Assembly (NCBI GenBank): GCA_020555605.1
Contig: JAJCJC010000009.1
Coordinates: 1-64,000, forward strand
Direction: 5' to 3'
Source of the DNA: a bacterium 210917-SL.2.15
Lineage (GTDB): Bacteria; Bacillota; Clostridia; Oscillospirales; Oscillospiraceae
DNA length: 64,000 nucleotides
Below, one piece after another: positions 28,865 to 43,122 of this stretch. Below the pieces are notes generated by a model. It saw only the letters and a list, made by a program, of their open reading frames with translations, was not told where the DNA came from and made no database searches. Each line of letters begins with the position of its first letter. Position 1 is the stretch's first letter. The position numbers and the translations under genes were made by a program.

Positions 28865-29206
28865 TCAGCCTCGGATCTTTTGAATAAGGGCTTTTACCTC
28901 ATCTTTTTTCAAGACTTTACCATAGGACACGACCTTGCCATCTACCACAAGAGCAGGAGTAGTCATTACACCATAGGCGGCAATCTGCGAGAAGTCTGTT
29001 ACCTGGTCTATGGTTGTGTCCATGTTTAGTTCCGCAAGCGCCGCTCTGGTGGCATCTTCCAACGCATGGCACTTCGCACAGCCAGCTCCCAGCACTTTGA
29101 CCCCGGAAGTTGTTTTTGCGGCCTCTGCCCGGGCCATCTTTTCCGGTGTGCAGATGCTCCCGCAGCAGCAACTTTTTTCTTCTTTCTTCTTACTAAACAA
29201 TCCCAT
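28865..29206 (-). CDS. Thioredoxin-like small redox protein
   Basis: 113 residues. A Cys-rich leader (SCCCGSICTPEKM, 12-24) is followed by a thioredoxin-fold domain with CxxC in GAGCAKCHALEDA and the cis-proline motif VMTTPALVVDGKVV. This is the small 'redox-active disulfide protein 2' type often encoded beside arsenic or other metal permeases. Third gene of the arsR operon. A role as reductant or chaperone for the permease is inference. Confidence 0.82.
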   Translation of the reverse strand: MGLFSKKKEEKSCCCGSICTPEKMARAEAAKTTSGVKVLGAGCAKCHALEDATRAALAELNMDTTIDQVTDFSQIAAYGVMTTPALVVDGKVVSYGKVLKKDEVKALIQKIRG

Positions 29207-29225
29207 CGTGAATGACCTCCTTAGA

Positions 29226-30227
29226 TTAAATCAAAATGAATTGAAACGCATTGAACAGATAGCCGACCAAAATAATGCCAATCGCGCAAATTCCAATGAA
29301 CAGCGCCAGCAATTTGGGTTTAACAGCCTTGCGGAGCATGATAAGTGACGGTAGGGACAGGGTGGTGACAGCCATCATGAAGGACAAAACGGTACCGAGT
29401 TGCGCTCCTTTAGAAAGCAGAGCCTCCGCAACAGGAATTGTGCCGAAAATATCCGCATACATCGGAATACCTACGATCGTGGCGAGGATCACGCCAAAGG
29501 GGCTGTTGCTGCCAAGTACTGTTTCAATCCAATTTTCCGGTATCCAGTTGTGGATCAGCGCGCCGATCCCAACACCAATCAGAATATAAGGGAACACTTT
29601 TTTAAACGTGTCTAACATCTGTTCCTTTGCGTAAGTCAGACGCTCCCGTATCGTCGGATCGGGCGACTCAATATCCACACCACCAGCCGAGAGGATGAAG
29701 CTCTCAACATACTTTTCCATATGTAATTTTTCGATAAGCGTACCGCCCACTACGGAAATCACCAGCCCTACCACCACATAAACGATGGCGACTTTTGCAC
29801 CGAAGATGCTCATAAGCAGTACCAAACTGCCCAGATCTACCATCGGGGAGGAAACCAAAAAAGAAAATGTCACGCCCAGAGGTAGACCCGCGCTGGTAAA
29901 GCCGATGAATAAGGGAATAGAGGAGCAGGAGCAAAAGGGTGTTACTGTTCCCAGCAGAGCGGAAACGATGTTCGCCCAAATCCCATGGAGACGACCTAAA
30001 ATGCGTTTGCTCCGTTCCGGTGGAAAATAACTTTGGATATAGGAGACGGCAAAAATCAATATGCAGAGCAACACCGTGATTTTCAAAACGTCGTAGATAA
30101 AAAACTGGACGCTGCCACCAATGCGCCCATTCACATCCAATCCCAGTGCCGGCAGGCCCATGCCGAGAAGTTCATTGAGCCATTTCATGCCAAGCATTTG
30201 ATCTTGAATAAAGCCCCATACGCCCAT
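29226..30227 (-). CDS. ArsP/DUF318-type permease
   Basis: 333 residues with about eight membrane helices in two repeats. The conserved TPFCSCSSIPL (near 95) and the second-repeat GIPMYADIFGTIPV are the signatures of the UPF0718/ArsP permeases, some of which export trivalent organoarsenicals such as methyl- or phenylarsenite. Cotranscribed with arsR and the thioredoxin-like gene. The substrate is inferred from family and context, not proven. Confidence 0.85.
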   Translation of the reverse strand: MGVWGFIQDQMLGMKWLNELLGMGLPALGLDVNGRIGGSVQFFIYDVLKITVLLCILIFAVSYIQSYFPPERSKRILGRLHGIWANIVSALLGTVTPFCSCSSIPLFIGFTSAGLPLGVTFSFLVSSPMVDLGSLVLLMSIFGAKVAIVYVVVGLVISVVGGTLIEKLHMEKYVESFILSAGGVDIESPDPTIRERLTYAKEQMLDTFKKVFPYILIGVGIGALIHNWIPENWIETVLGSNSPFGVILATIVGIPMYADIFGTIPVAEALLSKGAQLGTVLSFMMAVTTLSLPSLIMLRKAVKPKLLALFIGICAIGIILVGYLFNAFQFILI

Positions 30228-30255
30228 ACAAGAACCTCACTTTCCATTTGATGGA

Positions 30256-30283
30256 CAATATATCAAAACTTTTTGATATATTG
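30256..30283. promoter_or_regulatory. ArsR-type operator between arsR and the permease
   Basis: CAATATATCAAAA and TTTTGATATATTG form a 13-bp inverted repeat with a two-base spacer. The core ATCAAA/TTTTGAT equals the operator at the arsR promoter, so ArsR probably binds both. Confidence 0.65.
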
Positions 30284-30329
30284 TGTAGATTGAAACGCTA
30301 TCTAAATTAGATGGCGTTTCAATCTACAC
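30283..30329 (-). terminator. 47-base hairpin overlapping the arsR stop
   Basis: GTGTAGATTGAAACGC (30283-30298) pairs with its complement at 30314-30329, and the inside (ATCTAA.TTAGAT) pairs too. One arm encodes the last residues of ArsR. It has no strong T tract on the minus strand and looks like an attenuator or RNA-stability element that would lower permease expression relative to arsR. Confidence 0.6.
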
Positions 30330-30634
30330 TGGGGACAGGTATTTTCTTGCTCCATGTCTGGAGTTGTCAATTTTTTCAACAGTTCTATCGCATAGTCCCT
30401 GCCAGAAGAACTCAGTCGGTAGTGCGTCCATTTGCCCTCCTGACGACTGATGACGATGCCGGAATCGCAGAGGATTTTCATGTGGTAGGAGAGGCCGGAC
30501 TGCGTTAAATCCAATGGCTCCTGAAGGACACAAGCACACTTTTCACCGCTCCTTAACTGTTCCAGAATTGCAAGCCGCTTAGGGTCGCAGAGGGCCTTAA
30601 ACACTTTTACCTGTTCTTGATACGCTGTCCCCAT
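30302..30634 (-). CDS. arsR: ArsR-family metalloregulator
   Basis: 110 residues. Winged helix-turn-helix with the metal-site motif SGEKCACVLQEPL (CxC in the alpha-3 helix region), recognition helix DLTQSGLSYHMKIL, and a C-terminal CPQC pair. It represses until arsenite, antimonite or a similar thiol-loving metal binds. The ATG at 30632-30634 has a GGTGAG site; an in-frame TTG/ATG lies 15-18 bases upstream. Confidence 0.87.
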   Translation of the reverse strand: MGTAYQEQVKVFKALCDPKRLAILEQLRSGEKCACVLQEPLDLTQSGLSYHMKILCDSGIVISRQEGKWTHYRLSSSGRDYAIELLKKLTTPDMEQENTCPQCRLKRHLI

Positions 30635-30647
30635 GTTCTCACCGCAC

Positions 30648-30698
30648 ATCAAATTATTTTGATATGATTAGTATATGCGGCACCTTTGAGTTTGTCAA
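30648..30698 (-). promoter_or_regulatory. arsR promoter with operator on the start site
   Basis: On the minus strand TTGACA (30693-30698), 17 bp, TATACT (30670-30675). The inverted repeat ATCAAATTATTTTGAT (30648-30663) lies just downstream of the -10, over the transcription start, the classic place for ArsR autorepression. Confidence 0.8.
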
Positions 30699-30902: not shown

Positions 30903-30915
30903 TTATTCCCATTCT
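30903..30915. repeat. attL core of the integrated element
   Basis: TTATTCCCATTCT, identical to 43275-43287. The flanks differ on the element side and restore a guaA-terminator junction on the host side. Confidence 0.8.
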
Positions 30916-31040
30916 GTTTCGGCTTACGCTGAACAAGGCTGAAAAGTGCTTCTTTTCTGCTGAATATGTGGCGAATTTCAACAATTTTTCAGCAATATTC
31001 AGTGTAAAATGAACTATTCAAGCGTACTCTGAACCGCTAT

Positions 31041-31058
31041 TAGTACGATTTTAGTACG
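31041..31058. repeat. Left arm-type repeat of the element
   Basis: TAGTACGATTTTAGTACG, matched at 17 of 18 bases by 43147-43164 near the other end, in the same orientation and at a similar distance (about 110-125 bp) from each att core. Probably integrase arm-binding sites. Confidence 0.6.
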
Positions 31059-31111
31059 CCCGTTTTTTCAATCCCTTGAACTGCCTTTCTTTTGAAAATC
31101 AACTTTCAAAG

Positions 31112-31339
31112 TCAGTAATCACAGTTTGGATCAGGGTACAAGTCAACCACGGGGAAAGTCGTGATCAGAAGGTTTTTCCCACGCTCCAAACTATCCCGCA
31201 TTATTGCTTCAGGATCGGCCATAGCACCTTCCAACAAATAATCCCGGCCCCTATATTCATAAACACAGCGGCCATCAGGCATGGCATAAAACACCTGTCC
31301 ACCGAAACGGGCGGTGAAGGCTTCTTCAGTCTTGGTCAT
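31112..31339 (-). CDS. Small element protein, unknown
   Basis: 75 residues (MTKTEEAFTARFGGQVFYAM...). No recognised domain; two acidic stretches and a single cysteine near the end. Starts 13 bases after the zinc-ribbon gene and is the last gene of the element's minus-strand operon. Confidence 0.6.
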   Translation of the reverse strand: MTKTEEAFTARFGGQVFYAMPDGRCVYEYRGRDYLLEGAMADPEAIMRDSLERGKNLLITTFPVVDLYPDPNCDY

Positions 31340-31352
31340 AGCACACCGCCTT

Positions 31353-31742
31353 TCAATCCCACATGACAACGGCCACAACATCTGTTTTCTTCAGGGGTTC
31401 CCGGCAAGCTGGGCAACGCATATCTTTCCCGCTCCTGATCCGGTGCATGGTTGCCCCACACTCACACCGCTGAAGGATTGGAACCCGGATAGGGGCTTTC
31501 ACAGTAACCGCCAGACGGCTTTCCAGCTTGCCACAGTCCCCGCATTGGTACATAGCCCTTTCAACGCTCACAGGGGCTTCAGGATGGGCTATCATGGCCG
31601 CTTGTGCCTTGGGGCCATAGATACCCGCCAGAATGCTTTCCCGCTCCATATCGGTTTCCACAGGGGACATAAAGCCCACACCGGATAGAAGTTCTTCTTC
31701 ACGGCCACATTTAGGGCATTTGTAAACAAACCCTTTACCCAT
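31353..31742 (-). CDS. Four-CxxC zinc-ribbon protein of the element, unknown
   Basis: 129 residues with four cysteine pairs: CPKCG (9-13), CGDCG (about 67), CECG (about 93) and CPAC (about 110), so two zinc ribbons. Downstream of a hairpin and an element-specific repeat, which suggests its own transcription unit. Such proteins on phage-like elements are often labelled tail or replication accessory, but nothing here supports either. Confidence 0.65.
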   Translation of the reverse strand: MGKGFVYKCPKCGREEELLSGVGFMSPVETDMERESILAGIYGPKAQAAMIAHPEAPVSVERAMYQCGDCGKLESRLAVTVKAPIRVPILQRCECGATMHRIRSGKDMRCPACREPLKKTDVVAVVMWD

Positions 31743-31792
31743 ACCGGTTCACCCCTTTTGGATTCCAGTATAGCATACCTGACCAAAAGAAG

Positions 31793-31822
31793 AAACCCCG
31801 GATCAGCTATGATCCGGGGTTT
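31793..31822. terminator. Terminator between the tape-measure and zinc-ribbon genes
   Basis: A 13-bp stem (AAACCCCGGATCA with its complement, loop GCTA) with short A and T flanks on both sides. Confidence 0.75.
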
Positions 31823-31843
31823 ACTTGTTGACTGGAAAACCAA

Positions 31844-31871
31844 ATTCCCGGACATTTCGGAGGCCCTAAAA
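31844..31871 (-). repeat. Element repeat copy 1 (TGTCCG-AAA-TGTCCG type)
   Basis: Read on the minus strand: TTTTAGGG, two bases, TCCGAAATGTCCGGGAAT. It differs from copy 2 (36433-36460) at two of 28 bases. It lies in the gap between the tape-measure stop and the zinc-ribbon gene. Confidence 0.6.
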
Positions 31872-31909
31872 AGTGGCAATCGCACCCGCCAAATACATTT
31901 TGTATGCCA

Positions 31910-33874
31910 TTACTCATGCACCCCTTCTTCAGAAACATCCAGCTTTTCAGCAAAATCATTGGCCCAAGCATCCATGATCCCGTCAAGATCGGTGTCACTG
32001 GAAATGTGGTTTTCATTGTGCTGTTCCACATGGATTTCAGCCGTGGTGAACCGGTTGATTGCTTCCTGCTCCGCAATATCCCGCATATAGGCCAAATCTT
32101 CTTCAGCAATATCAAGGGCATCACTCATGGCGGCGGTGTTCCCCGCCGTGTCCCCGGTGTTGCCATAGATACCATCAAGGGTGTTGCCAAGGTTGAAGGC
32201 ATCTGTACCATCAAGGCTAAAGGCTCCGGAAATTTTATCGGCAATTCCTTTGCCGAAATCATATCCAGCGGAAGCGGCTTCAGAATAATCAATGAAGTCC
32301 ATCTTCTGAACATATTCAACCCAACCGGCTTCATCTTTAACTTTCTGCTGGGCCTGCTCCAATCCTACATAAAAGTTATCAAGGCCGCTTGTAATGTCTA
32401 CTGTCACACCGGGGATCTTATTGATCAAATCTTCAATGCCTTGGGCCAAATTGCGGATATATCCAATGACGGTCAGGCACATATCATAGAAAAGCACCTT
32501 CACCGCCGCAACAGGGTCATTGAACACATTCCCAATGAAGTTGGCGATCATGGCAAAAGCATTTTGCAACGGGATAATGAAAGTGTTCAGAATGTGCGCC
32601 CCCAACACGGCAAAGGCCCCGCCAATGATACCGGTTGCAGATACACCGGCTCCGGTAAACTTATTATAGGCCGCAACGCCAGCATACAAGGCCGCAATCA
32701 AAACGGCAATTAGCATGACCACCCACACAATGGGATTAGCCAGCAATGCCGAATTGAAGGTGAACACAGCCGCTGAAGCCGCCGCCGTGTTGCCTGTAAG
32801 AATGCCAAAGCCAATGGAAAGGAAGTTCACAACACCATGGTAAATGGCCGTTGCCGCCGCCGCAATCTGTGTCCAATGGGCGGCAATCTGAAATACAGCA
32901 AAAGCCGCACCCAATCCAAGCACAAGAGGGCCGATAATAGAAATATTGTTAGCAAGCCAGTTGATCCCGTTCAACAAGGGCTGAAGCACCTGAAGGGCCA
33001 CATTGGAAGCCATGGTGAAAACTTGGCCCCATGTTATGGGCATATTTTCAAAAGTTTTGTTTACTTCATTGGCCGAAGAAAGAACAGCATTCTTCACTAC
33101 ATCTGCTGTGATTTGTCCTTCTTCGGCCATAGCCCGGATTTCACCTATAGAAACGCCCAAATAATCTGCGATAGATTGAACCACTGGTTGGGCATTTTCA
33201 AAAACGCTGTTTAGTTCTTCACCACGAAGCACACCGGAAGCCATTGCTTGGGTAAGCTGAAGGGTTGCGGCTTCTATTTGCTGAGCCTGCGCTCCGGCAA
33301 TGACAAATTGCTTGTTCAGGGTTTCGGTGAATGCAATCAGTTCATCATTTCCGGAAAAGGCATCAGCGGTCATCAAGCCCATTTGGGAAACTGCTTGGGC
33401 GGTGGTCAGATAAGAAGCCCTTGACCGCTGGGCCGAAGCCATGATCTTCTTTTCCAATTCTCCAACGGAACCGCCATCATCCACAATCAGATTCAGCCTT
33501 GCCCGTGTGCTTGCCATGCTGTCAGAGAGATTCACCAGCTTCTTCAATGCGGTCAATCCGCCAACGGCTACGGCAATATTTTTGATCTGCTGAAGCAATC
33601 CACCGGCGCTATCAGAACCTTCTTGAATGCGGTCATTAAAGCGATTCTGGGCAGTATCGGCTTGTCTGATCTGCTGTTCCATCTGGTCAAACCCAACCGT
33701 GGCTTCAGCAATATCTTCCCGCACCTGCTGAAGAACTGAAGAATCGAACCCATGCTCAAAAGTGCCTTGGGCCGTTTCCATGGCGTTGATAAGGGTATTC
33801 ACCCCCCGGCTCATTGCCTGAAGGGGGCGGCTCATTTGGTCATAAATTTGAATTGCGGCTCTAATAGTTGCCAT
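31910..33874 (-). CDS. Phage tail tape-measure protein
   Basis: 654 residues. The N-terminal 230 are largely alpha-helical with the tape-measure signature (MASTRARLNLIVDDGG, ASYLTTAQAVSQMGLM, ATLQLTQAMASGVLRGEELN). Two or three hydrophobic stretches follow at about 300-400 (PLVLGLGAAFAVFQIAA, VVMLIAVLIAALYAGVAA), then an acidic C-terminus. In siphophages this protein sets tail length and enters the host membrane. No tail tube, tail terminator, distal-tail or baseplate gene is near. It overlaps the preceding gene by 14 bases. Confidence 0.85.
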   Translation of the reverse strand: MATIRAAIQIYDQMSRPLQAMSRGVNTLINAMETAQGTFEHGFDSSVLQQVREDIAEATVGFDQMEQQIRQADTAQNRFNDRIQEGSDSAGGLLQQIKNIAVAVGGLTALKKLVNLSDSMASTRARLNLIVDDGGSVGELEKKIMASAQRSRASYLTTAQAVSQMGLMTADAFSGNDELIAFTETLNKQFVIAGAQAQQIEAATLQLTQAMASGVLRGEELNSVFENAQPVVQSIADYLGVSIGEIRAMAEEGQITADVVKNAVLSSANEVNKTFENMPITWGQVFTMASNVALQVLQPLLNGINWLANNISIIGPLVLGLGAAFAVFQIAAHWTQIAAAATAIYHGVVNFLSIGFGILTGNTAAASAAVFTFNSALLANPIVWVVMLIAVLIAALYAGVAAYNKFTGAGVSATGIIGGAFAVLGAHILNTFIIPLQNAFAMIANFIGNVFNDPVAAVKVLFYDMCLTVIGYIRNLAQGIEDLINKIPGVTVDITSGLDNFYVGLEQAQQKVKDEAGWVEYVQKMDFIDYSEAASAGYDFGKGIADKISGAFSLDGTDAFNLGNTLDGIYGNTGDTAGNTAAMSDALDIAEEDLAYMRDIAEQEAINRFTTAEIHVEQHNENHISSDTDLDGIMDAWANDFAEKLDVSEEGVHE

Positions 33875-34223
33875 GATTTTTCACCACCTTCCTGCGCTCC
33901 AATTCCGCCAACAGGCAATAACGGTAAATGACCTGAAGCGGCTGATTTGAGTGTGAACAGCGCAAGGAATCAAGTTCCTTTTCAATCTGCCGGTTTTTCA
34001 GCTTCATAACCGCTTCTGTGGCCTTCTTCACAAGTTCAAAGTGCTTGAAATCCTTGTTCAGAATCATGATACCATCAGGGCCAAACTGCCCCGGCACCTG
34101 TTCCAGCGGGACAGAGGGATCAGGCTTATAACTGATCTGTGGAATGAAGGGGATCAGAGAAAACCGAACCGCCCACAGATTTTTGTTGATAATTTCAATG
34201 TTCGGGTTTTCGTGTTTCAGCAT
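33861..34223 (-). CDS. Small protein upstream of the tape measure, unknown
   Basis: 120 residues (MLKHENPNIEIINKNLW...). Begins with a short PQISYKPDPSVPLEQVPG segment and ends in basic helices. In tailed phages the gene before the tape measure is a tail assembly chaperone; position and overlap fit that, but I see no family motif. The ATG at 34223 has an AAGGCGG site nine bases away; a GTG at 34232 overlapping the sigma stop is the alternative. Confidence 0.6.
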   Translation of the reverse strand: MLKHENPNIEIINKNLWAVRFSLIPFIPQISYKPDPSVPLEQVPGQFGPDGIMILNKDFKHFELVKKATEAVMKLKNRQIEKELDSLRCSHSNQPLQVIYRYCLLAELERRKVVKNHGNY

Positions 34224-34228
34224 ATTTT

Positions 34229-35272
34229 TCACCGCCTTTTTGTAAGTGCGTCAGCTTCCCGTAAGAGGGCTTCCGCCTGTTTGATGGTTTTTTGCAGTTT
34301 TTTAAGGCCAATAGGAACAGTTCCATTTTCCTTTTTCATGCGGGATGAAGATACTTGGGCAAAGGTGGATATACCACGAATTTCTTTTGCTGAATTTTTC
34401 CGTGACTGTTCCTGTTCAATGTGTTTCAGTGCCAAATATTCTGTTGCTGAAGTGCCTGTATTTTTGAAGTGTCCAAGCCCCCAATGATAGGCTTGAGCGC
34501 ACTCATACCCATAAACTTCAGCGGCTTCTTTCAGCTTCTTATTTCGGCGAAGGTTGGAAATGGCCCGGTTCTTAATCTGCCGAACCCGTTCTATACTGAC
34601 TTCCAGCCGATCCGAAATGCCTTGGAGCGTTTCACCGTTTTTGTAATAGCCTTGAACAACTTCAGAAGCGTTTCCACCAAGATCAGAAACAGCCCCCCAA
34701 ATAGTGGTTTTGGCTTGCTCATCTGCCAAAGTGTCACAAACACTTTCTTCAAGGTTAAAATCATCTGCAATCACATCAGCAAGGGTGAAATCTTCTGTTC
34801 CGGGTACAATGCCATCCAAACTTGCTGTTTCAGAACCGGTCATGTATTTGCGAAGTTCCTTCAGCCGCCTATTTTCGATACTAAGATAGAAGCAATATTC
34901 TTCATCGGTAGGTTCGTCCCCAACTACGGCTTGAAAATCTGAACGGAACTTTTGATATTTTGAAATCTGTTCAAGAACATGAACGGGAACACGCTTCAAG
35001 CGCCCACAGTTCTGACAATATCTTTGGATTGACAAGCGTATATGATTTTCGGCATAGGTTAAAAACGCATAGCCCAAGGTTGGATCATACTTGGAAACCG
35101 CTTTTTCCAATCCAAAATAGGCTTCCTGCATCAGATCATCCAATTCAACAGAATTGGAAAACGGCAAGGCAAGCCCAGCAATAAATCGCCGGTTTTGCTG
35201 GTATAGCATCGTCATATTCTCCGAAACATGATCCCCGGCTTGGATCAGGGCCACAAGTTCTTCATTGGTCAT
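34229..35272 (-). CDS. Sigma-70 family factor of the element
   Basis: 347 residues. Region 2 lies at about 20-85 (LALPFSNSVELDDLMQEAYFGLEKAVSKYDPTLGYAFLTYA, given here only as landmarks D46-Y85), and region 4 near 200-250 (GETLQGISDRLEVSIERVRQI). A basic, low-complexity C-terminal tail of about 90 residues follows. A complete sigma factor on the element could direct transcription of its own or a helper phage's genes. Good AGAAGGT ribosome site. Confidence 0.8.
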   Translation of the reverse strand: MTNEELVALIQAGDHVSENMTMLYQQNRRFIAGLALPFSNSVELDDLMQEAYFGLEKAVSKYDPTLGYAFLTYAENHIRLSIQRYCQNCGRLKRVPVHVLEQISKYQKFRSDFQAVVGDEPTDEEYCFYLSIENRRLKELRKYMTGSETASLDGIVPGTEDFTLADVIADDFNLEESVCDTLADEQAKTTIWGAVSDLGGNASEVVQGYYKNGETLQGISDRLEVSIERVRQIKNRAISNLRRNKKLKEAAEVYGYECAQAYHWGLGHFKNTGTSATEYLALKHIEQEQSRKNSAKEIRGISTFAQVSSSRMKKENGTVPIGLKKLQKTIKQAEALLREADALTKRR

Positions 35273-35293
35273 GGTTTACCTTCTCTCTTGATA

Positions 35294-35340
35294 GGGTTCA
35301 CCCCTAAAGGCCCATACGAAACCTTCAGGGGGGTGAACCC
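35294..35340 (-). promoter_or_regulatory. Leader hairpin of the sigma gene
   Basis: GGGTTCACCCCT pairs with AGGGGGGTGAACCC (35294-35305 with 35327-35340) across a 21-base loop, 20 bases upstream of the sigma start. It could control translation or attenuate transcription. Confidence 0.45.
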
Positions 35341-35357
35341 AATATGGAGGTAACAAC

Positions 35358-35504
35358 TTACTTCTGATTGCGTTTCTGCTCCACCAAGGCTTCCAAGGCA
35401 TCTGCTATCCGGTGAAGTTCGTAGGTGCGTTGATAGAAAAACAGGGTTTTCCAATCAAATCGGTTATCATCTTCCAACATTTTGATAAATTCTTCTCTGG
35501 TCAT
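35358..35504 (-). CDS. 48-residue element protein, unknown
   Basis: MTREEFIKMLEDDNRF... to VEQKRNQK: charged and helical, with an AGGTG site before the ATG at 35502-35504. It fills the gap between the 270-residue protein and the sigma gene exactly and is in the operon direction. No family recognised. Confidence 0.6.
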   Translation of the reverse strand: MTREEFIKMLEDDNRFDWKTLFFYQRTYELHRIADALEALVEQKRNQK

Positions 35505-35525
35505 TTATAACACCTTCTTCCGTAA

Positions 35526-36338
35526 TCAACTAAATAAAACCTTATACTTGGGGTGAAGGCTGACCAATGCACGGAGTTCCGGGCTGTTCATAATCTGTGT
35601 CATGGCATCACCGGAAGGTAAGCCATCAGAGAACAGGCTTTCTACAATAGTTTGTTCCTGATCAGTCAACTTACGGGGTTCCACAGTGGGAGTGGTTTGT
35701 TCATTGCCATCCAGAATATCAATAGCATAAGTCTTATAGTTCATATCATCTGGGGCACCATTCTCCTTACCGCCCCAAACATCAAAAAACACTTTGCTAT
35801 CCAATCCCATTTCCCGGTAATCGGTTGTATTCTTCAAATCATCAATGGCACTGTGAAGATATTTTTCAGTCCAACGCAAGGCATCAGTTAAAGCCTGATA
35901 GTCATACGAAACCGGAATATGGAGATTATGACCGGCTTGACTGGCAATAATCTGAAGGCTATGAAGGGCACGATAATTCCCCGTAAGCTGTACAGCAATA
36001 GACTTGATTTCATCGGGAGTAATTTCACTTCCTTGAATCCGAAGTGCTGTCAGCAGGTTCGTTTGCTCTACACTGGGGGCATCTGCAAGCATTTTATTCA
36101 ATGCAGTTCTTTTTTCGGTTACTGTCAACTTAACAGCCGCTTCAAGATCGGCAACCACAGAAGCACGAACTTTGGCAACTTCAGTTTCACCCTCATCTTT
36201 AATTTTCTTTAAGTAATCTGGGGCATAGATATTCAGATCAATCAATTTCTGATATGCCTTGTTTACTTCAGCTTGCTTGCTGACAATTTTCTGATACTGA
36301 GTAATTGCATATTCTCTGAGTTCAGCAAAAGTTTTCAT
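35526..36338 (-). CDS. 270-residue element protein, unknown
   Basis: Mostly alpha-helical and charged (MKTFAELREYAITQYQK...), with long helices to about residue 110 and a looser acidic C-terminus ending LVSLHPKYKVLFS. The position right after the small terminase would suit a scaffold-like or packaging-redirecting protein, but no motif supports this. Strong AAAGGATG ribosome site. Confidence 0.65.
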   Translation of the reverse strand: MKTFAELREYAITQYQKIVSKQAEVNKAYQKLIDLNIYAPDYLKKIKDEGETEVAKVRASVVADLEAAVKLTVTEKRTALNKMLADAPSVEQTNLLTALRIQGSEITPDEIKSIAVQLTGNYRALHSLQIIASQAGHNLHIPVSYDYQALTDALRWTEKYLHSAIDDLKNTTDYREMGLDSKVFFDVWGGKENGAPDDMNYKTYAIDILDGNEQTTPTVEPRKLTDQEQTIVESLFSDGLPSGDAMTQIMNSPELRALVSLHPKYKVLFS

Positions 36339-36432
36339 AAATTTATCATCCTTTCATTTAGCTATAAGCTCAAAGTGTTGATTTTACAGGGTTTGAAGGC
36401 CTTTTTGTTACTATTGTGTTTTTATTGCCCCC

Positions 36433-36460
36433 TTTTAGGGTGTCCGAAATGTCCGGGAAT
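36433..36460 (+). repeat. Element repeat copy 2
   Basis: TTTTAGGG, then TGTCCGAAATGTCCGGGAAT: a direct repeat of TGTCCG three bases apart. It lies in the gap between the small terminase and the 270-residue gene. Confidence 0.6.
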
Positions 36461-36482
36461 AGCTGTGGCCGGGGCCAGCGGT

Positions 36483-36905
36483 TCAATCTTCAAGTTGATC
36501 ATCACCCACAATCACAACCGGAATGGCATTATCAATTTTCACTTTGTCACTGAACAGTCCATAACGCTTGCCCAACAGTTCCGCCGCTCTAATCCGGTCT
36601 TTGGCTGAAACCTGTTTGGTGGTGATCTTTTGTACACTATTCCCGACAAGAATCAGAACTTCTTCAGTATGTTCACCCCGCATTACAGCGGTAAGGTATT
36701 TCATGATTTCTTCAATATCAGCGATATTGGCGCTTGTCATGCCGTCCAAAAAGGCCGCAATAGCGGTTTGAACCTTAACATTGGATAACAGCCGGGAAGC
36801 CTGTTCCTGTGCTGTCTTGGGGCTATAACCGGCCCTGATTGCCGCTTGCTTTGCGTTCAAGTCAATCAGATATTCTTGTATAAATCGCTCTTGCCGTTTG
36901 GTCAT
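36483..36905 (-). CDS. Terminase small subunit
   Basis: 140 residues. The N-terminal helix-turn-helix block (TKRQERFIQEYLIDLN-AKQAAIRAGYS, residues 2-28) is the Terminase_2/XtmA signature that recognises the packaging site. The C-terminus (AKDRIRAAELLGKRYGLF) is typical too. No large terminase is present, as in SaPI-type satellites, where a satellite TerS redirects the helper's large subunit to package satellite DNA. Confidence 0.88.
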   Translation of the reverse strand: MTKRQERFIQEYLIDLNAKQAAIRAGYSPKTAQEQASRLLSNVKVQTAIAAFLDGMTSANIADIEEIMKYLTAVMRGEHTEEVLILVGNSVQKITTKQVSAKDRIRAAELLGKRYGLFSDKVKIDNAIPVVIVGDDQLED

Positions 36906-37055
36906 TGGATCACCTTCTTTCTGATACTCTAATTATACCATTTCAGCCCTTGCAAATCACTATATATAGTAATTTTAGGTTGTTTTCCGTGTGTATAACC
37001 ACTTTATATTGTGTCTTTGGAATATTAACTTCAATAAAAAACAAGCGGCTCAAGA

Positions 37056-37340
37056 TTACCTTGAACCGCTTGTGGCCTGAATGATTTTTCGTATATGATC
37101 AGGGCTTAGTTCATACCGTTCTCCCAATGCTTTGTAAATTTCCTGATACTTCATACCGGAAAATTCCGGTGAACAGAAATCCGCCCGGATTGCTGTATTC
37201 CGCTTGTCGCGCCTTGCACGGTCAATTCTTTTTGGTATGCAAATCGTACCGGGGCCAAGCTGTTCAATGATGATCTGAAACAATGTGGGGCCGGTCAGAT
37301 CATAAAGAACCTGAAGTTTCTGTTGGTTGGTCATGCTCAT
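37056..37340 (-). CDS. Mor-like transcription activator
   Basis: 94 residues. C-terminal helix-turn-helix MKYQEIYKALGERYELSPDH...RKII matches the Mor/C family of phage Mu, which activates middle or late promoters. The N-terminal dimerisation half (LYDLTGPTLFQIIIEQLGPG) also fits. It may control the later genes of the operon (small terminase to tape measure). ATG at 37340 with a GGTGGTGAA site. Confidence 0.7.
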   Translation of the reverse strand: MSMTNQQKLQVLYDLTGPTLFQIIIEQLGPGTICIPKRIDRARRDKRNTAIRADFCSPEFSGMKYQEIYKALGERYELSPDHIRKIIQATSGSR

Positions 37341-37344
37341 AGGT

Positions 37345-37734
37345 TCACCACCCAAAATTGTCAGCAATCAGCTTGATTGGCTTGGGTGGAATCTTTACCG
37401 GCCTTCCATCCGAATCAGGCGCATAGCGCTTATATTTTGCCGCAAAATTCCCGCACAAAATATATGGCTGATCTTTAATCTGTTTTCGGCTCATAAAATG
37501 AACTCCGCCGCAAGTGGGACAAATCCAAAACCAATGATCCGTTTTTGAATGGCCCAAAGGGTAAACCACATCAGGTTCATCCCCAGATTTATATTGTGTT
37601 CGCTGATCTATATAGAACTTGCGCCCAAACCTTGTCCCAAAGCAAACAACGTCGTCAGGGCGGTGGTTCACTCGGCCCGTTCTCATTGCATCAAGGGAGG
37701 CATGATAACCCATAATTGGAAGCAGATACTTCAT
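37345..37734 (-). CDS. Zinc-ribbon element protein, paralogue A
   Basis: 129 residues with FYIDQRTQYKS near 40, PLGHSKTDHWFWICPTCGGVH (about 58-78) and a second cysteine in ILCGNFAAKY. It shares order and motifs with the next gene upstream, so the two arose by tandem duplication. Function unknown. Confidence 0.65.
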   Translation of the reverse strand: MKYLLPIMGYHASLDAMRTGRVNHRPDDVVCFGTRFGRKFYIDQRTQYKSGDEPDVVYPLGHSKTDHWFWICPTCGGVHFMSRKQIKDQPYILCGNFAAKYKRYAPDSDGRPVKIPPKPIKLIADNFGW

Positions 37735-37740
37735 CAGGAA

Positions 37741-38106
37741 TCACCGGCTTTCTGATATGCCCAAGATAATCCGGTGTGCTGGAAGTTCTATGCGCTTCCC
37801 ATTGGCACCAAGAATCAACCGTGTGTGGCTTCTTTTCCCAATCCGACATCCACAGTTGATCGGCTGGTTGCCCTTAATCAAATTACTGTGAACAGAATGG
37901 GCTAATCCGCAATCAGGGCAGATATAAAGCCAATACCTATTAACGGTCATTCCAAGTGGCTTCACCAGATCAGGATCAGGATCCAACCGCCGTTCTGTTC
38001 TGCGATCAATGTAGAAGCGGCGGCTCTGGCCGTAAGCAATAATATCTTCAGGGTGATGGGTGATCTTTCCATCAATCAGCAATTCCATTGCTTCACCATA
38101 GGTCAT
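37741..38106 (-). CDS. Zinc-ribbon element protein, paralogue B
   Basis: 121 residues with FYIDRRTERRLDPDPDLVKP and YWLYICPDCGLAH, followed by INCGCRIGKRSH. Paralogue of the downstream gene; the cysteine spacing CPDCG plus CGC suggests one zinc site. AAAGGACG ribosome site. No function recognised. Confidence 0.65.
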   Translation of the reverse strand: MTYGEAMELLIDGKITHHPEDIIAYGQSRRFYIDRRTERRLDPDPDLVKPLGMTVNRYWLYICPDCGLAHSVHSNLIKGNQPINCGCRIGKRSHTRLILGANGKRIELPAHRIILGISESR

Positions 38107-38122
38107 TTTTATCGTCCTTTCC

Positions 38123-38303
38123 GCTTGTAGGAGATTTTGTAGTAAGAGAATATATAAATTCTATAATATTATTTCTTCACTTTATTTTTTTCAAAAGTTA
38201 TTCAGAAAATAGGTTGTTCTCCTACAACTCCTACAAGCAACGAATTTTGTAGTATTTATAAGGTGTAGGCCGTGTAGGTGAAGCATTCATTTCTTCACCT
38301 ACA
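38123..38303. repeat. AT-rich intergenic region with many CTACAA/TTGTAG repeats
   Basis: GCTTGTAGGAG (38123-38133) pairs with CTCCTACAAGC (38228-38238). ATTTTGTAGTA is directly repeated (38134-38144 and 38244-38254). GTGTAGGTGAAG (38270-38282 region) pairs with CTTCACCTACAC (to 38303). An AT-rich core of about 60 bases lies between. It could be a replication or regulatory region of the element; no gene is present in 38107-38373. Confidence 0.55.
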
Positions 38304-38373
38304 CAACACCTACAAAGCCGGGGTATTTTCGCTTCCTCGTCCGGGGTATAGCTGACATTGATCTTAATGGGCA

Positions 38374-38863: not shown

Positions 38864-38889
38864 TTTTAGGGTGTCGGAAATGTCGGAAT
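38864..38889 (+). repeat. Element repeat copy 3
   Basis: TTTTAGGG followed by TGTCGGAAATGTCGGAAT. Both TGTCCG units of copy 2 are TGTCGG here, so the two halves changed together. It sits 19-44 bases upstream of the 57-residue gene. Confidence 0.55.
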
Positions 38890-39153: not shown

Positions 39154-40983
39154 TTAACTCCATTTTTGAAAGGTGTGTTTCCGGCCATAGGCTCCACCAT
39201 TCTTGCCGGGTGGATAATATAGAATTTGATCCCGTAAATATAGCATTTTTGCGGTTGTCTTGATTTTTCTTCCAAGGGAGTCCGGTGATTTATCTGGGGG
39301 CTTACCTGTTACCTCAATGCAAAGTTTGAATAATTCTGAAGCTGTTCCGCTCCATGTCAGGGTTTCCGAATCCGCCAACAGTTTCTTTACTGTCTGCACT
39401 ACGGGATCATTTTCATACTCCAAAGCTAACCGCCGTTCTTCGACTTCATCAACGGAACCTTTACATTCCCACCGACACGAATCCGGGTTAAACTCAATTA
39501 CCATATCATCTGCCACAACATCCCGCCCGGTAATGTGAAGGGTTGTTTCCTTGTCAGTGCGGTTTGCCTTCTGCATCACAAGGGCAGTATCTACGGAACC
39601 GAAAATTCCGTTAGTGCCGGAAATACGCTCAAATACATCTCCGTCCCCCTTGCCTTTTTTCAGATGGTGAACTACCAAAATACAAATGGAGTGTTGATCC
39701 GCAAACTGCTTCATCTGACCCATTTGCCGGTAATCGTCCGAATAGGCGCTTTCACGGTTCTTGATTTCTCCTCTGACTTTTTGAAGCGTATCAATCACGA
39801 TCAGGCCAGTTTTTGGGAATTTGGTGATATATTGTTCAAGCTGGGTGATTAGTCCGTTATCCAAGTTCTTAGAGAGAACAGCATACCGGAATCCATACGG
39901 GGCCGATGCGTGGTAAGTCAAGCGGTTAATGCGGTTCTGAAGGCGGTTCTTGCTGTCCTCCAAAGCAAGGTATAAGCATTCTGTTTTCTCTGTCTTGTGG
40001 TTCATAAAGCAATCACCCGCAGAAACGGACAGGCAAAGATCAAGCACCCACCAGCTTTTACCGTACTTTGGAGGTGAAGCCAGCATGGTAAGCCCTTGTG
40101 GAATCATGTCAACAACCACCCAGCGGATAGGGGGAAGTTCTTCTTCCTGAAGATCCCTCACTGACTGAACATCAAGTTCAGGAACTTTGACCTTCTTTGA
40201 ACGCTCCACGCCCCGTTCATACTTGCCAACAGAACCACAAATTGTTTCCAGTTCCCTTTCAGGAAGCGGGGGATCACACCGGCCTTCATTGACCACCTTC
40301 AGCATGGCGAAAATTTCGCTTTCCGTGTACTCCTGCGCTCTTAGACTTGCCGCCATACGGAACAGGGTATCATTTCTACCGCCTTTAGAAATTTTATCGG
40401 ACAGTTCAAATGCCGGGCCGCTACTTTCTTCTTTGGTCAGTAGTTCCAATAGAAACTCTGGAAGATCGGCGGGACCCTCCGGCATTGCGGAAGGGTTCAG
40501 GCCGTCAAGCCATTTGTAAGGGTTTCCGTTGGGGTGTACGCTGGGCGGGAACATGGAATATCCGCCATTTCCCCGAACATCTACATTGGGCAAAATACCA
40601 ACAAAGTTTCCAATAGGTGCATCAGTACGAAACAGAAGTTGTTTACCGCCCCGCCCTGTCTGGAATGTCCAAGTAGGCGGAATTCCACCCCCATGCTGGG
40701 CGGCGTACTCCATCAGGGATTTTTCCCCGTCCGGTTCCCCGTCTGCCTTGGGCTTGTCCAAGTCAATAGCTATAATCCCGTGTCCCATAGCAACACCAAT
40801 ATTGAAAAGTCGGTTCGTATCTCCATCCCACCATTTCAAGGCCGCAGAGGGATCAGTAGTGGCTACTTCTCGCCAGTTCATTACGGCGGCTTCTTTGCCC
40901 TTGATTTTCAGTTGGAACACCGGTAGACCTAAAGCCGCATACTCTGCCGCTACGGGGCCAAAGCTGAAAGGCTCTTTGCTCAA
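39154..40983 (-). CDS. Primase-polymerase/RepA-like helicase fusion
   Basis: 609 residues, TTG start after AAGGTG. The N-terminal prim-pol (AEP) domain has the metal motif AIDLDK (72-77), QTGRGGKQ and a later histidine (PPSVHPNG, 147-154). The C-terminal RecA-like (AAA_25/RepA) ATPase has a Walker A PPKYGKSWW (304-312), Walker B-like GLIVIDTL and VVHHLKKG. Such fusions start replication of phages, plasmids and satellites. Confidence 0.85.
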   Translation of the reverse strand: MSKEPFSFGPVAAEYAALGLPVFQLKIKGKEAAVMNWREVATTDPSAALKWWDGDTNRLFNIGVAMGHGIIAIDLDKPKADGEPDGEKSLMEYAAQHGGGIPPTWTFQTGRGGKQLLFRTDAPIGNFVGILPNVDVRGNGGYSMFPPSVHPNGNPYKWLDGLNPSAMPEGPADLPEFLLELLTKEESSGPAFELSDKISKGGRNDTLFRMAASLRAQEYTESEIFAMLKVVNEGRCDPPLPERELETICGSVGKYERGVERSKKVKVPELDVQSVRDLQEEELPPIRWVVVDMIPQGLTMLASPPKYGKSWWVLDLCLSVSAGDCFMNHKTEKTECLYLALEDSKNRLQNRINRLTYHASAPYGFRYAVLSKNLDNGLITQLEQYITKFPKTGLIVIDTLQKVRGEIKNRESAYSDDYRQMGQMKQFADQHSICILVVHHLKKGKGDGDVFERISGTNGIFGSVDTALVMQKANRTDKETTLHITGRDVVADDMVIEFNPDSCRWECKGSVDEVEERRLALEYENDPVVQTVKKLLADSETLTWSGTASELFKLCIEVTGKPPDKSPDSLGRKIKTTAKMLYLRDQILYYPPGKNGGAYGRKHTFQKWS

Positions 40984-41301: not shown

Positions 41302-41378
41302 TAGCGAAAAAGATTTTTTTCAATCTGTTAATTTCTCTATTCTTGTGCTATACTGGTTTCATTGGAGGTGATACCGGC

Positions 41379-41888
41379 ATGACGGTAGGTGAAAATATCA
41401 GGAAATTGCGAAAAGAAAGGGGGCTAACACAAAAACAGCTTGGGGAACTATGCGGTATAAATGAAGCAAATATTCGTAAATATGAAGCGGATAAGCAAAA
41501 CGCAAAAATTGAAACCATAGAAAAAATAGCAAAGGCTTTAGGGGTTCCCATTGTCAAGATCAAGGAAGATTTGACTTGGGCAGAACACCAGAATACAGAG
41601 GAATTTAAGCAGTTGGAGCAGTCCACATATTTATTTGAAGGTATTGTGGTGGCCCTTGAAGAAATCTATGGTGCAGTGGAAGAAAAATCCATTATAGGGG
41701 AAAACGGATTGGAACGCCCCTATTGGGTTGTTGGAAAAGCCCCAAATAGTTTCATCCTGTATGAAGATGATATAGAAACCATTGTAAAGTCTGCCAAGGC
41801 TTCTATTCCGGCCTTGGTGGATCGGCTGAAGGACACCCGGCCCGAAGCTGAAATTATTCAAGAAATCACAGAAGAACTTAACAAGTAA
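41379..41888 (+). CDS. CI-like XRE repressor of the element
   Basis: 169 residues. The N-terminal helix-turn-helix (LTQKQLGELCGINEANIRKY, about 18-37) is followed by an acidic helical C-terminal half with no S24 peptidase motif. Loss of repression would need a partner protein, as with Stl of SaPIs, rather than RecA-driven self-cleavage. ATG at 41379 after GGAGGT. It precedes the integrase gene. Confidence 0.75.
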   Translation: MTVGENIRKLRKERGLTQKQLGELCGINEANIRKYEADKQNAKIETIEKIAKALGVPIVKIKEDLTWAEHQNTEEFKQLEQSTYLFEGIVVALEEIYGAVEEKSIIGENGLERPYWVVGKAPNSFILYEDDIETIVKSAKASIPALVDRLKDTRPEAEIIQEITEELNK

Positions 41889-41930: not shown

Positions 41931-42036
41931 AAGATACCACACTGGGACAGGCCCAATAATAGCACCTCTGCAAAAGCTATTATAGCACCTGCCCTTGGTT
42001 CAACGCAACCATTTTCACGAAAGGACAGGTGATTAT

Positions 42037-43122
42037 ATGCCGGTTTATAAGAATGAAAAAGCCGGTTCATGGTTCTGCAAGTTCTACTATACCGATTGGA
42101 CGGGGAACCGGAAGCAGAAGAAGAAAGAAGGCTTTAAGACAAAGAAGGAAGCCCAAGAATTTGAACGGGAATTCTTATCCAAGGCCCATGCTTCCTGTGA
42201 TATGTCCTTTGGCTCTCTGGTGGAACTTTACATGGAAGATTGCAAGCACCGTCTAAAGCCCACCACCTATTCCAACAAGCAATTTCTGATTAACACTAAA
42301 CTTCTTCCTTTCTTCCGGGATATGCCAATCAACACCATTACCCCAGCCACAATCAGAAAGTGGCAAAACGAACTTTTAGCTGATCCCAAGGGTTATTCCC
42401 CAACCTATCTAAAAACGGTAAATAATCAGGCCAGCGCCATTTTCAATTTTGCTGTGAAGTATTACCGGTTGGAAAGCAACCCTTGCCGCCTTGCTGGTAG
42501 CATGGGGAAAAAACACGCTGATGAAATGGAGATTTGGACGGTAGAAGAATTTAACCGTTTCATCCAAGCGGTTGCCGACAAGCCCCCTTCGGTTGTGATT
42601 TTCAATCTGCTGTTTTGGACGGGTATGCGATCCGGTGAACTGTTGGCTTTAACTGCGGATGATTTTGATTTTGAAGCCCATACGGTGAGCATTTCCAAAA
42701 ACTATGCCCGACATAAGAAAGAAGATTTGATCCTACCACCCAAAACCCCGAAAAGCAAACGGATCATCACTTTACCCCCGTTCCTATCCGAAATGGTACA
42801 GCGGTATTCCACCTGTATTTATGTTACCGATCCATCAGGGCGGCTTTTTAGACAAACTAAAAGCTATCTTCTCCATGAAATGATCAGAGGGTGTAAGGCT
42901 TCCGGGGTAAAGCGAATTCGGGTTCACGATCTGCGACACTCCCACGCTTCCTTCCTGATTGAAAAAGGCTTTTCCCCCTTGCTGATTGCTGACCGGCTGG
43001 GCCATGAAAACATTGAAACCACCCTTCAGACATACAGCCATCTTTACCCCAACAAACATTCAGAAGTTGCGGCCTTGATTGAAGAAGCCCATTCCGCTTC
43101 CAGCAAAGCCCAACAGGGCTAA
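42037..43122 (+). CDS. int: Tyrosine integrase of the element
   Basis: 361 residues. N-terminal AP2-like DNA-binding part (WFCKFYYTDWTGNRKQ), then the catalytic domain with R198 (WTGMRSGELLAL), H297/R300 (HDLRHSHASFL), H323 (LGHENI) and the nucleophile Y333 (TLQTYSHLYP). The full active-site set is present. It lies at the guaA-proximal end, as guaA-targeting integrases do. It should catalyse insertion at, and excision from, the guaA 3' end. Confidence 0.92.
   Translation: MPVYKNEKAGSWFCKFYYTDWTGNRKQKKKEGFKTKKEAQEFEREFLSKAHASCDMSFGSLVELYMEDCKHRLKPTTYSNKQFLINTKLLPFFRDMPINTITPATIRKWQNELLADPKGYSPTYLKTVNNQASAIFNFAVKYYRLESNPCRLAGSMGKKHADEMEIWTVEEFNRFIQAVADKPPSVVIFNLLFWTGMRSGELLALTADDFDFEAHTVSISKNYARHKKEDLILPPKTPKSKRIITLPPFLSEMVQRYSTCIYVTDPSGRLFRQTKSYLLHEMIRGCKASGVKRIRVHDLRHSHASFLIEKGFSPLLIADRLGHENIETTLQTYSHLYPNKHSEVAALIEEAHSASSKAQQG

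What the first reader, a model, noticed from the sequence alone, without database searches (positions are those of the whole stretch)
31910..33874. A tape-measure protein in an element that has no other recognisable tail gene
Seen: a 654-residue tape-measure protein is the largest gene, with a small gene overlapping its start where phages keep a tail assembly chaperone. No tail tube, terminator, distal-tail or baseplate gene is recognised. Known: satellites described so far redirect packaging or capsid size. Inferred: this one might replace the helper's tape measure, changing tail length, host-entry channel or the helper's fitness. This could be an undescribed way of parasitising a helper.
Basis: partly seen in the sequence, partly recalled or inferred. 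Interest (0 to 1): 0.75.

Follow-up and report, generated by a model that had tools for sequence, protein, structure and literature searches.

The report
Gut phage satellite carrying tail ruler
A 12-kb element that looks like a parasite of bacterial viruses, inserted next to a housekeeping gene of a gut bacterium, carries an intact viral tail-length-ruler gene and short copies of a DNA stretch known from viral packaging genes; related elements carry the same ruler gene, so it probably builds hybrid virus particles with a helper virus.

Summary
Window 31910-33874 (-) encodes an intact tape-measure protein (TMP; PF20155, phrog_1068) in a ~12.4-kb guaA element with integrase, divergent regulators, prim-pol and its own TerS, but no TerL, capsid, portal, sheath, tube or baseplate gene found. 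It is not a one-strain remnant: the small overlapping gene (ovl123) has relatives in 20 viral contigs and 3 of 400 genomes, in all of them just upstream of a TMP; one contig is a recognisable full phage. TMP dN/dS is 0.09-0.34. Sister elements with 96-97% identical integrases carry scaffold and capsid genes instead of, or together with, the TMP. Best explanation: a satellite that puts its own TMP into helper-made contractile tails. That principle was published for Vibrio PLEs in March 2026, so this is a new variant of a known kind. Changed tail length is not supported: satellite TMPs are as long as their nearest phage relatives. The chaperone label rests on position only. Unexpected: the element has three copies of a direct-repeat site that in phages lies inside terS and covaries there; 13 of 43 satellite-type loci have it outside terS, which suggests a copied packaging signal. 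No experiment was run; the helper is unknown.

The parts
30904..30914 (+). attachment-site core TATTCCCATTC at the end away from the integrase
   Evidence: direct repeat D8; core located; same kind of core in sister element L026
31112..31381 (-). small ORF of the constant right flank
   Evidence: region 30907-31826 is 94.6% nt identical in Intestinimonas element L106 and 84-89% in L026
31353..31742 (-). zinc-ribbon-like protein of the constant right flank
   Evidence: zinc-ribbon hits below the Pfam cut-offs
31849..31871 (+). pac-like site 3 (units CGGAC/CGGAG), at the junction of variable cassette and right flank
31866..31910 (-). 14-codon stub of the phage tail gene that follows the TMP
   Evidence: sequence; phage homologues start MAYKMYL or similar
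31910..33874 (-). tape-measure protein, 654 aa, intact
   Evidence: PF20155 E 6.5e-46, phrog_1068 E 1.8e-191; dN/dS 0.19 against L136
33861..34232 (-). 123-aa TMP partner (ovl123), unknown fold, in the chaperone position
   Evidence: 20 of 20 viral contigs and 3 of 3 genome hits have a TMP downstream
34229..35272 (-). sigma-70-like regulator
   Evidence: PF04542 E 7.8e-11, PF04545 E 5.4e-10, phrog_351 E 2.4e-42
35358..35504 (-). 48-aa ORF
   Evidence: ORF list only; no PHROGs hit
35526..36338 (-). 270-aa protein, perhaps related to the A_238 gene at the same place in other TMP satellites
   Evidence: hhalign E 6.6e-4, probability 27%: weak
36433..36455 (-). pac-like site 1 (CGGAC/CGGAC), between terS and the orf270-sigma-ovl123-TMP genes
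36483..36905 (-). terminase small subunit (phrog_51 type)
   Evidence: PF03592 E 5.8e-34, phrog_51 E 2.2e-44
37056..37367 (-). late-activator-like regulator
   Evidence: phrog_836 E 2.6e-5
38864..38886 (-). pac-like site 2 (CCGAC/CCGAC)
   Evidence: phage terS L171 has the same 23 bases
39154..40983 (-). primase-polymerase with AAA domain
   Evidence: PF09250, PF13481, PF08708
41025..41219 (-). small HTH regulator, divergent to the XRE gene
   Evidence: phrog_4583 E 5.1e-6
41343..41888 (+). XRE repressor-like protein
   Evidence: PF01381 E 4.6e-16
41995..43122 (+). tyrosine integrase
   Evidence: PF00589, PF14659; 96-97% identical in L026, L105, L136
43276..43286 (+). attachment-site core at the guaA 3' end

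Best explanation
The element is a phage satellite of gut Clostridia integrated at the 3' end of guaA. Shown by sequence: satellite-like architecture, an intact TMP under purifying selection, linkage of TMP to ovl123 across many elements, and three pac-like sites. Inferred: when a contractile-tail helper is active, the sigma-ovl123-TMP genes are expressed, ovl123 helps the satellite's TMP to be used, and the TMP replaces the helper's in helper-made tube, sheath and baseplate (chimeric tail), as shown for PLEs. Also inferred: DNA is packaged by helper terminase at sites copied from helper terS, by the satellite's own TerS, or both. Sister elements bring capsid genes in the same slot, so the family seems to supply different parts of a hybrid virion.
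For: ~12.4-kb element between two att cores. Same order sigma-ovl123-TMP in L105 (Intestinimonas butyriciproducens An565) and in L094, L095 and L096, at 22-43% identity in the last three. Related sigma plus a 1103-1185-aa TMP, without ovl123, in eight more integrase-sharing loci. ovl123 scan: 20 of 20 viral contigs have a TMP within about 520 nt downstream; by tblastn 19 of 20 have no sheath, tube or XkdN; 3 of 400 genomes, all three with a TMP beside it. Pfam on 72 ORFs of 7 such elements: TMP_3 7, Sigma70_r2 7, one portal, one TerS, one HK97-gp10, no TerL, capsid, sheath, tube or baseplate family among the 25 shown of 39; on 80 further ORFs of 20 loci the only virion family among the 25 shown of 41 is one portal. 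TMP dN/dS 0.09-0.34 for the 13 of 17 pairs that could be computed. TMPs of phages and satellites are interleaved (at least 5 label changes). Pac-like sites: 15 in 13 of 43 satellite-type loci against 0.05 per shuffled scan; in the four phage loci tested the site lies in terS followed by terL, and its repeat units are identical in 51 of 77 terS genes against 7.2 shuffled.
Against: No expression, virion or helper data. Many relatives are incomplete contigs, so absence of other genes there is not proof. One full phage (L113) also has an ovl123-like gene. TMP is mostly lost in element L112; it is split into two ORFs in L118 and L126, and in L126 integrase and prim-pol are split too. 30 of 43 satellite-type loci, among them the close relatives L105 and L136, show no pac-like site of this pattern. 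ovl123 has no detectable homology to chaperones.
Confidence: 0.6

Rival explanations
1. The TMP and its partner poison or compete with the tail assembly of the helper or of other phages (interference or defence) and are not built into satellite virions.
For: Satellite and prophage proteins that block tail assembly are known (Tai, passages read; Rta). ovl123 is small, of unknown fold and was found only next to a TMP.
Against: A decoy need not keep a full-length TMP, as long as that of phages, under purifying selection; in sister elements TMPs sit together with neck, adaptor, portal, minor head or capsid genes, which suggests building rather than blocking.
Confidence: 0.17
2. A degraded prophage or passive cargo: the TMP is what is left of a tail module.
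For: A cut-off start of the next tail gene lies behind the TMP; L112 kept only the TMP's C-terminal end (read by eye); a gene that lies third behind the TMP in phages follows the TMP directly in L105, L129 and L131.
Against: Same arrangement in many diverged elements, one TMP clade of nine that holds satellites only, dN/dS well below 1, intact replication and integration genes in the window.
Confidence: 0.1
3. The TMP is carried to change the inner-membrane entry route or to escape tail-targeting defence, while ovl123 is unrelated to TMP use (a regulator or an immunity protein).
For: The TMP body is exchanged with phages in pieces; in PLE11 the own TMP escapes Rta.
Against: The strict ovl123-TMP linkage argues for a joint role; no defence gene of the Rta or Tai kind was looked for.
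Confidence: 0.13

Closest known systems
PLE satellites of Vibrio cholerae (PLE1, PLE4, PLE11) with tmp-tac genes
   Same: Satellite-encoded TMP with a small gene in the chaperone position; contractile-tail phages carry the nearest relatives of the TMP; no complete tail module
   Different: Other hosts and integration site; own TerS (not compared with PLEs in a call); partner gene without detectable relation to known chaperones; sister elements with capsid genes; copied terS DNA site
Gram-positive PICIs (SaPI kind)
   Same: Tyrosine integrase, divergent regulators, primase, TerS, about 12 kb (features of PICIs partly recalled, size and packaging)
   Different: No recognised capsid-size or Ppi-type gene among the hits (no model of these was searched for by name); carries a TMP and a sigma factor
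cf-PICIs
   Same: Bring own virion genes; some are predicted to carry tmp (PMC12987554, legend)
   Different: cf-PICIs bring the whole capsid and packaging set (passage); this element brings none of the capsid genes
P2-P4 system
   Same: Satellite DNA carries the helper's own packaging signal (cos; passage)
   Different: Here the copied site would be a pac-like site from inside terS

Membership tests
Tape-measure protein (TMP_3) | Score above the curated Pfam cut-off | tested here: met
   156.9 bits against 41
Satellite with TMP substitution (PLE kind) | Intact TMP in an element without a full tail module | tested here: met
Satellite with TMP substitution (PLE kind) | TMP present in satellite virions in place of the helper's | not testable with these tools
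   needs virion proteomics
Satellite with TMP substitution (PLE kind) | Tail assembly chaperone beside the TMP | tested here: inconclusive
PICI | Integrase, divergent regulators, primase, TerS, 10-15 kb | tested here: met
PICI | Induction by a helper phage and packaging in its capsids | not testable with these tools
   no helper known
cf-PICI | Complete set of capsid and packaging genes | tested here: not met
   no capsid, portal or TerL gene among 18 ORFs nor by tblastn
Full prophage | Head, packaging, tail and lysis modules | tested here: not met
XkdN-type tail chaperone | Homology to phrog_389 | tested here: not met
   no phrog_389 hit for ovl123 at E <= 0.1; hhalign A4 against A6 probability 0

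The most novel reading that the evidence does not exclude
Gut Clostridia hold a family of satellites with one backbone and an exchangeable slot of single virion parts (capsid and scaffold, portal, neck, tape measure), which build hybrid virions; a dedicated partner protein, kept while TMPs are swapped with phages, makes the satellite's TMP win; and, in part of the family, several copied terS-embedded pac sites of different specificity let one satellite be packaged by different helpers.
Probability: 0.25. Interest if true: 0.87.

Novelty: new variant of a known kind. Interest (0 to 1): 0.73.

Why it matters
It would show that bringing an own tape measure is not a peculiarity of Vibrio PLEs but an independent and wider satellite strategy in gut Bacillota. 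It names a concrete candidate (ovl123) for the mechanism that the PLE paper calls unknown, by which satellite TMPs are selectively incorporated. The covarying repeat inside terS is a sequence signature from which packaging specificity, and so helper-satellite pairing, might be predicted.

Tried and rejected

A satellite-specific TMP N-terminus matched to ovl123: sat-sat identity 0.37, sat-phage 0.37, phage-phage 0.46 over residues 1-100; rejected.

Shorter tails: not supported, lengths equal those of the nearest phage TMPs.

Helper in the same genome: no genome is held for the window. Scans of viral contigs with the sigma protein and with the zinc-ribbon protein found no relatives. The prim-pol was found only as distant relatives (43% identity at best) in 4 of 394 genomes of the order and 8 of 300 of the family of G382. 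The TMP gave 7 of 87 genomes at E <= 1e-60 in the family of G001; apart from G001 their surroundings were not classified.

Zinc ribbon, orf270 and the small ORFs: no function could be assigned.

First form of the 21-bp repeat: I first took it for a recombination or operator site specific to satellites; the scan of viral contigs showed it inside terS of phages, so that reading was dropped. One search failed through an error of mine (empty query file) and was repeated.

My ORF picker takes the longest ORF and can hide a gene behind an antisense ORF (it hid the capsid gene of L136). Absence of virion genes was therefore checked again by tblastn.

Rows dropped: of 83 ORFs listed, 72 were scanned; of 88, 80 were scanned, and ORFs already labelled by BLAST or HMM (TMP, neck, adaptor, minor head and others) were left out by design. 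In some searches only 25 of 39 and 25 of 41 families are shown; the hidden ones have one member each and weak E-values. The 17 integrase loci with 43% identity or less were left out of the table.

Full report
WHAT IS THERE. The ORF 31910-33874 (-) is an intact 654-aa tape-measure protein: phrog_1068 E 1.8e-191 and TMP_3 (PF20155) 156.9 bits against a cut-off of 41. The sigma-70-like gene (34229-35272), a 123-aa gene (33861-34232, here ovl123) and the TMP overlap by 4 and 14 nt. The element ends at two copies of TATTCCCATTC (30904 and 43276, the latter at the guaA 3' end), so it is about 12.4 kb. It further holds a tyrosine integrase, divergent XRE and HTH regulators, a prim-pol/AAA protein, a weak late-activator-like protein and a terminase small subunit (PF03592 E 5.8e-34). 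No TerL, capsid, portal, sheath, tube or baseplate gene was found in 18 ORFs scanned with PHROGs, 10 of them also with Pfam, nor with tblastn of 24 phage virion proteins at E <= 1e-5. Behind the TMP lies a 14-codon stub (MAYKMYLAGAIATF*) with the same one-base TAATG overlap that joins TMP and the next tail gene in phages (L004, L007, L012), so the TMP came from such a tail module. The names that I use for the genes behind the TMP in phages (LysM, XkdQ, DUF2577) are recalled; XkdN is from PHROGs.

SISTER ELEMENTS. L026 (IMG/VR 2545555870_000006) shares integrase 97%, XRE 99%, prim-pol 98% and the right flank, but the stretch corresponding to window 31883-38315 holds scaffold (phrog_172 E 1.3e-13), major capsid (phrog_422 E 1e-62), a regulator and a head-tail adaptor (phrog_615 E 4.5e-41) instead. 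L105/L106 (Intestinimonas butyriciproducens An565) holds TerS 67%, sigma 82%, ovl123 54% and a TMP of 714 aa, at 50% identity overall but with its last 296 bp 96.6% identical to the window; it sits at the 3' end of a second GMP-synthase-like gene ending in IEWE. One backbone with an exchangeable slot for single virion genes fits these data.

SPREAD. An integrase scan of viral contigs gave 47 loci. Of the 30 that I tabulated (L041-L069 and L071), 11 have a TMP beside a sigma-like gene in the fetched DNA: three with ovl123 and eight with a 1103-1185-aa TMP. The other 19 are not all negative: several are short, and two belong to full prophages that hold a TMP elsewhere (G699, G703). A profile of ovl123 gave 20 viral contigs. 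In 20 of 20 a TMP lies downstream on the same strand within about 520 nt, in L115 and L121 with a neck gene and in L116 with a short ORF between. Three of the 20 are records already met (L114=L095, L120=L094, L123=L096), and L122 and L124 are near copies of L096. By tblastn only L113 (53.9 kb) has sheath, tube, XkdN and the genes behind the TMP and so is a full phage; among the other 19, L117 has portal and minor head, L128 minor head, and L129 and L131 one gene (DUF2577-like) of those behind the TMP; neck or adaptor genes occur in L114, L115, L116, L121, L128 and L132. In L118 and L126 the TMP is split into two ORFs, and L126 has other split genes too. Of 400 genomes searched, three have ovl123, all three with a TMP next to it. 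In the protein collection 235 relatives of ovl123 were found; the 120 listed carry no Pfam domain, and those with a name are called hypothetical. Of 13 phage-type loci examined (L001-L008, L011, L012, L103, L104, L113) one, L113, has ovl123; XkdN was recognised in nine of the 13.

SELECTION AND HISTORY. Pairwise dN/dS of TMPs was 0.09-0.34 for the 13 of 17 pairs that could be computed, satellite and phage pairs together; window against L136 gives 0.19. In four pairs dS was saturated, and nearly so in window against L002 (2.5). A tree of 31 TMPs puts the window with L136 (100/100) in a group with phages L002 and L003, L105 next to phage L011, L138 among L004, L007 and L012, and nine satellite TMPs in a clade of their own (100/100); the satellite label needs at least five changes; eight inner branches are open and some rows are long. 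So TMPs were exchanged between phages and satellites more than once, and one lineage has stayed in satellites. Lengths match: 654 and 654, 714 and 713, 709 and 711-714.

THE SMALL GENE. ovl123 shows no relation to XkdN (hhalign probability 0). Its AlphaFold2 model is good (mean pLDDT 86), but no Foldseek match reached E 0.001. I therefore call it a TMP partner by linkage only. The idea of a satellite-specific TMP N-terminus was tested and rejected.

A PACKAGING-SITE COPY. A repeat noticed at the cassette border led to a motif, CGGACATNTCGGACACCCTAAAA. An exact scan of viral contigs found 28 contigs. Reading frame and context put 19 of them inside a terS-like gene and 9 outside one. Four of the 19 were given to PHROGs: all four genes are terminase small subunits (phrog_309, E 1e-54 to 1e-72) and all four following genes are TerL. 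To test DNA-level selection without that bias I took 80 terS genes found through other peptides. In 77 distinct genes two 5-nt units, nine bases apart from start to start, are identical in 51, against 7.2 on average and 18 at most in 10,000 shuffles; in none of the other 113 windows does equality exceed about 1%. The units differ between genes and change together, and the following bases are NCC (71 of 77), TTA or CTA (71 of 77) and AAA (76 of 77). Codon entropy at the Leu and Lys is 0.49 and 0.10 of expectation, at 58 other conserved codons 0.92 on average. Related sequences are counted here as if independent, so the shuffle figure is not a strict probability. The general pattern occurs 15 times in 13 of 43 satellite-type loci (618 kb; 0.05 per scan in shuffles); that set holds near-copies (L096, L122, L124) and three loci (L139, L143, L158) found through the motif. 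The other 30 loci, among them L094, L095, L105/L106 and L136, have none, so the site is not common to the family. The window has three: CGGAC/CGGAC, CCGAC/CCGAC and CGGAC/CGGAG. The CCGAC site equals, over its 23 bases, terS of L171, which lies in the same 44.4-kb record as the TMP phage L004. Site 2 lies in the leader of a small ORF whose frame is open through it, so a coding role there is not excluded. L115 and L116, close relatives (TMP dN 0.03, dS 0.09), have different units (GTCAG and CGGAC). I read this as a copied pac site. That a pac site can lie in or near terS is recalled for classical pac phages; [quoted passage not shown] another (PMC10690885, passages) tells that P4 carries cos sites recognised by the P2 terminase. 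The window's own TerS is of another type (phrog_51), also found beside TerL-sized genes in phage loci L250 and L251 (56-57%), so two packaging routes are possible. Two of 17 motif-bearing records have a TMP of the window's kind (G699, G827); several of the other 15 are fragments.

COMPARISON WITH PRINT. PMC12987554 (section 8 read in full; other passages) shows for PLE11 that satellite TMP and hub replace the helper's in virions, that tmp deletion cuts transduction, that tmp-tac genes are common to PLEs, and that cf-PICIs have predicted tmp genes. [quoted passage not shown] So the principle is known. I found no paper on TMP satellites at guaA or in Oscillospirales in the listings of seven searches of the held open-access library; most subscription journals and all preprints are outside it.

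VERDICT. Satellite: very likely. TMP use in chimeric tails: likely (0.6), not shown. Pac-site copy: likely by sequence, not shown and not common to the family. New variant of a known kind.

Noticed in passing
window 36433-36455, 38864-38886, 31849-31871; terS of L140-L162 and L170-L249: Direct-repeat DNA site inside phage terS with covarying units, present outside terS in some satellites; probably a pac site and a possible predictor of helper-satellite pairing.
   Followed up: yes
window 31883-38315 against L026 6770-9692: Near-identical satellites exchange the whole virion cassette: capsid, scaffold and adaptor genes in one, TerS, sigma and TMP in the other.
   Followed up: yes
L109 5925-8223 (-): An element with a serine-recombinase-like integrase (by eye) and a related prim-pol carries the same capsid (69%) and scaffold (49%) type plus a sigma-like gene.
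   Followed up: partly
L107 6530-10195 (-): A prim-pol element holding a 453-aa gene that I take by eye for a terminase large subunit (not scanned) and an orf270-like gene, but no TMP hit.
   Followed up: no
L051 585-3971 and 18185-20188 (-): Two long TMP-like ORFs on either side of one integrase, perhaps two such elements side by side.
   Followed up: no
window 28865-30652 (-): Directly outside the element: what looks to me, from memory, like an ArsR-type regulator, a permease and a small protein with a CxxC motif; perhaps a metal or metalloid island.
   Followed up: no
L106 4144-5868 (+), L137 5555-7258 (-): Proteins of 567-574 aa with signal-like N-termini (by eye) at the end of satellite cassettes.
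   Followed up: no
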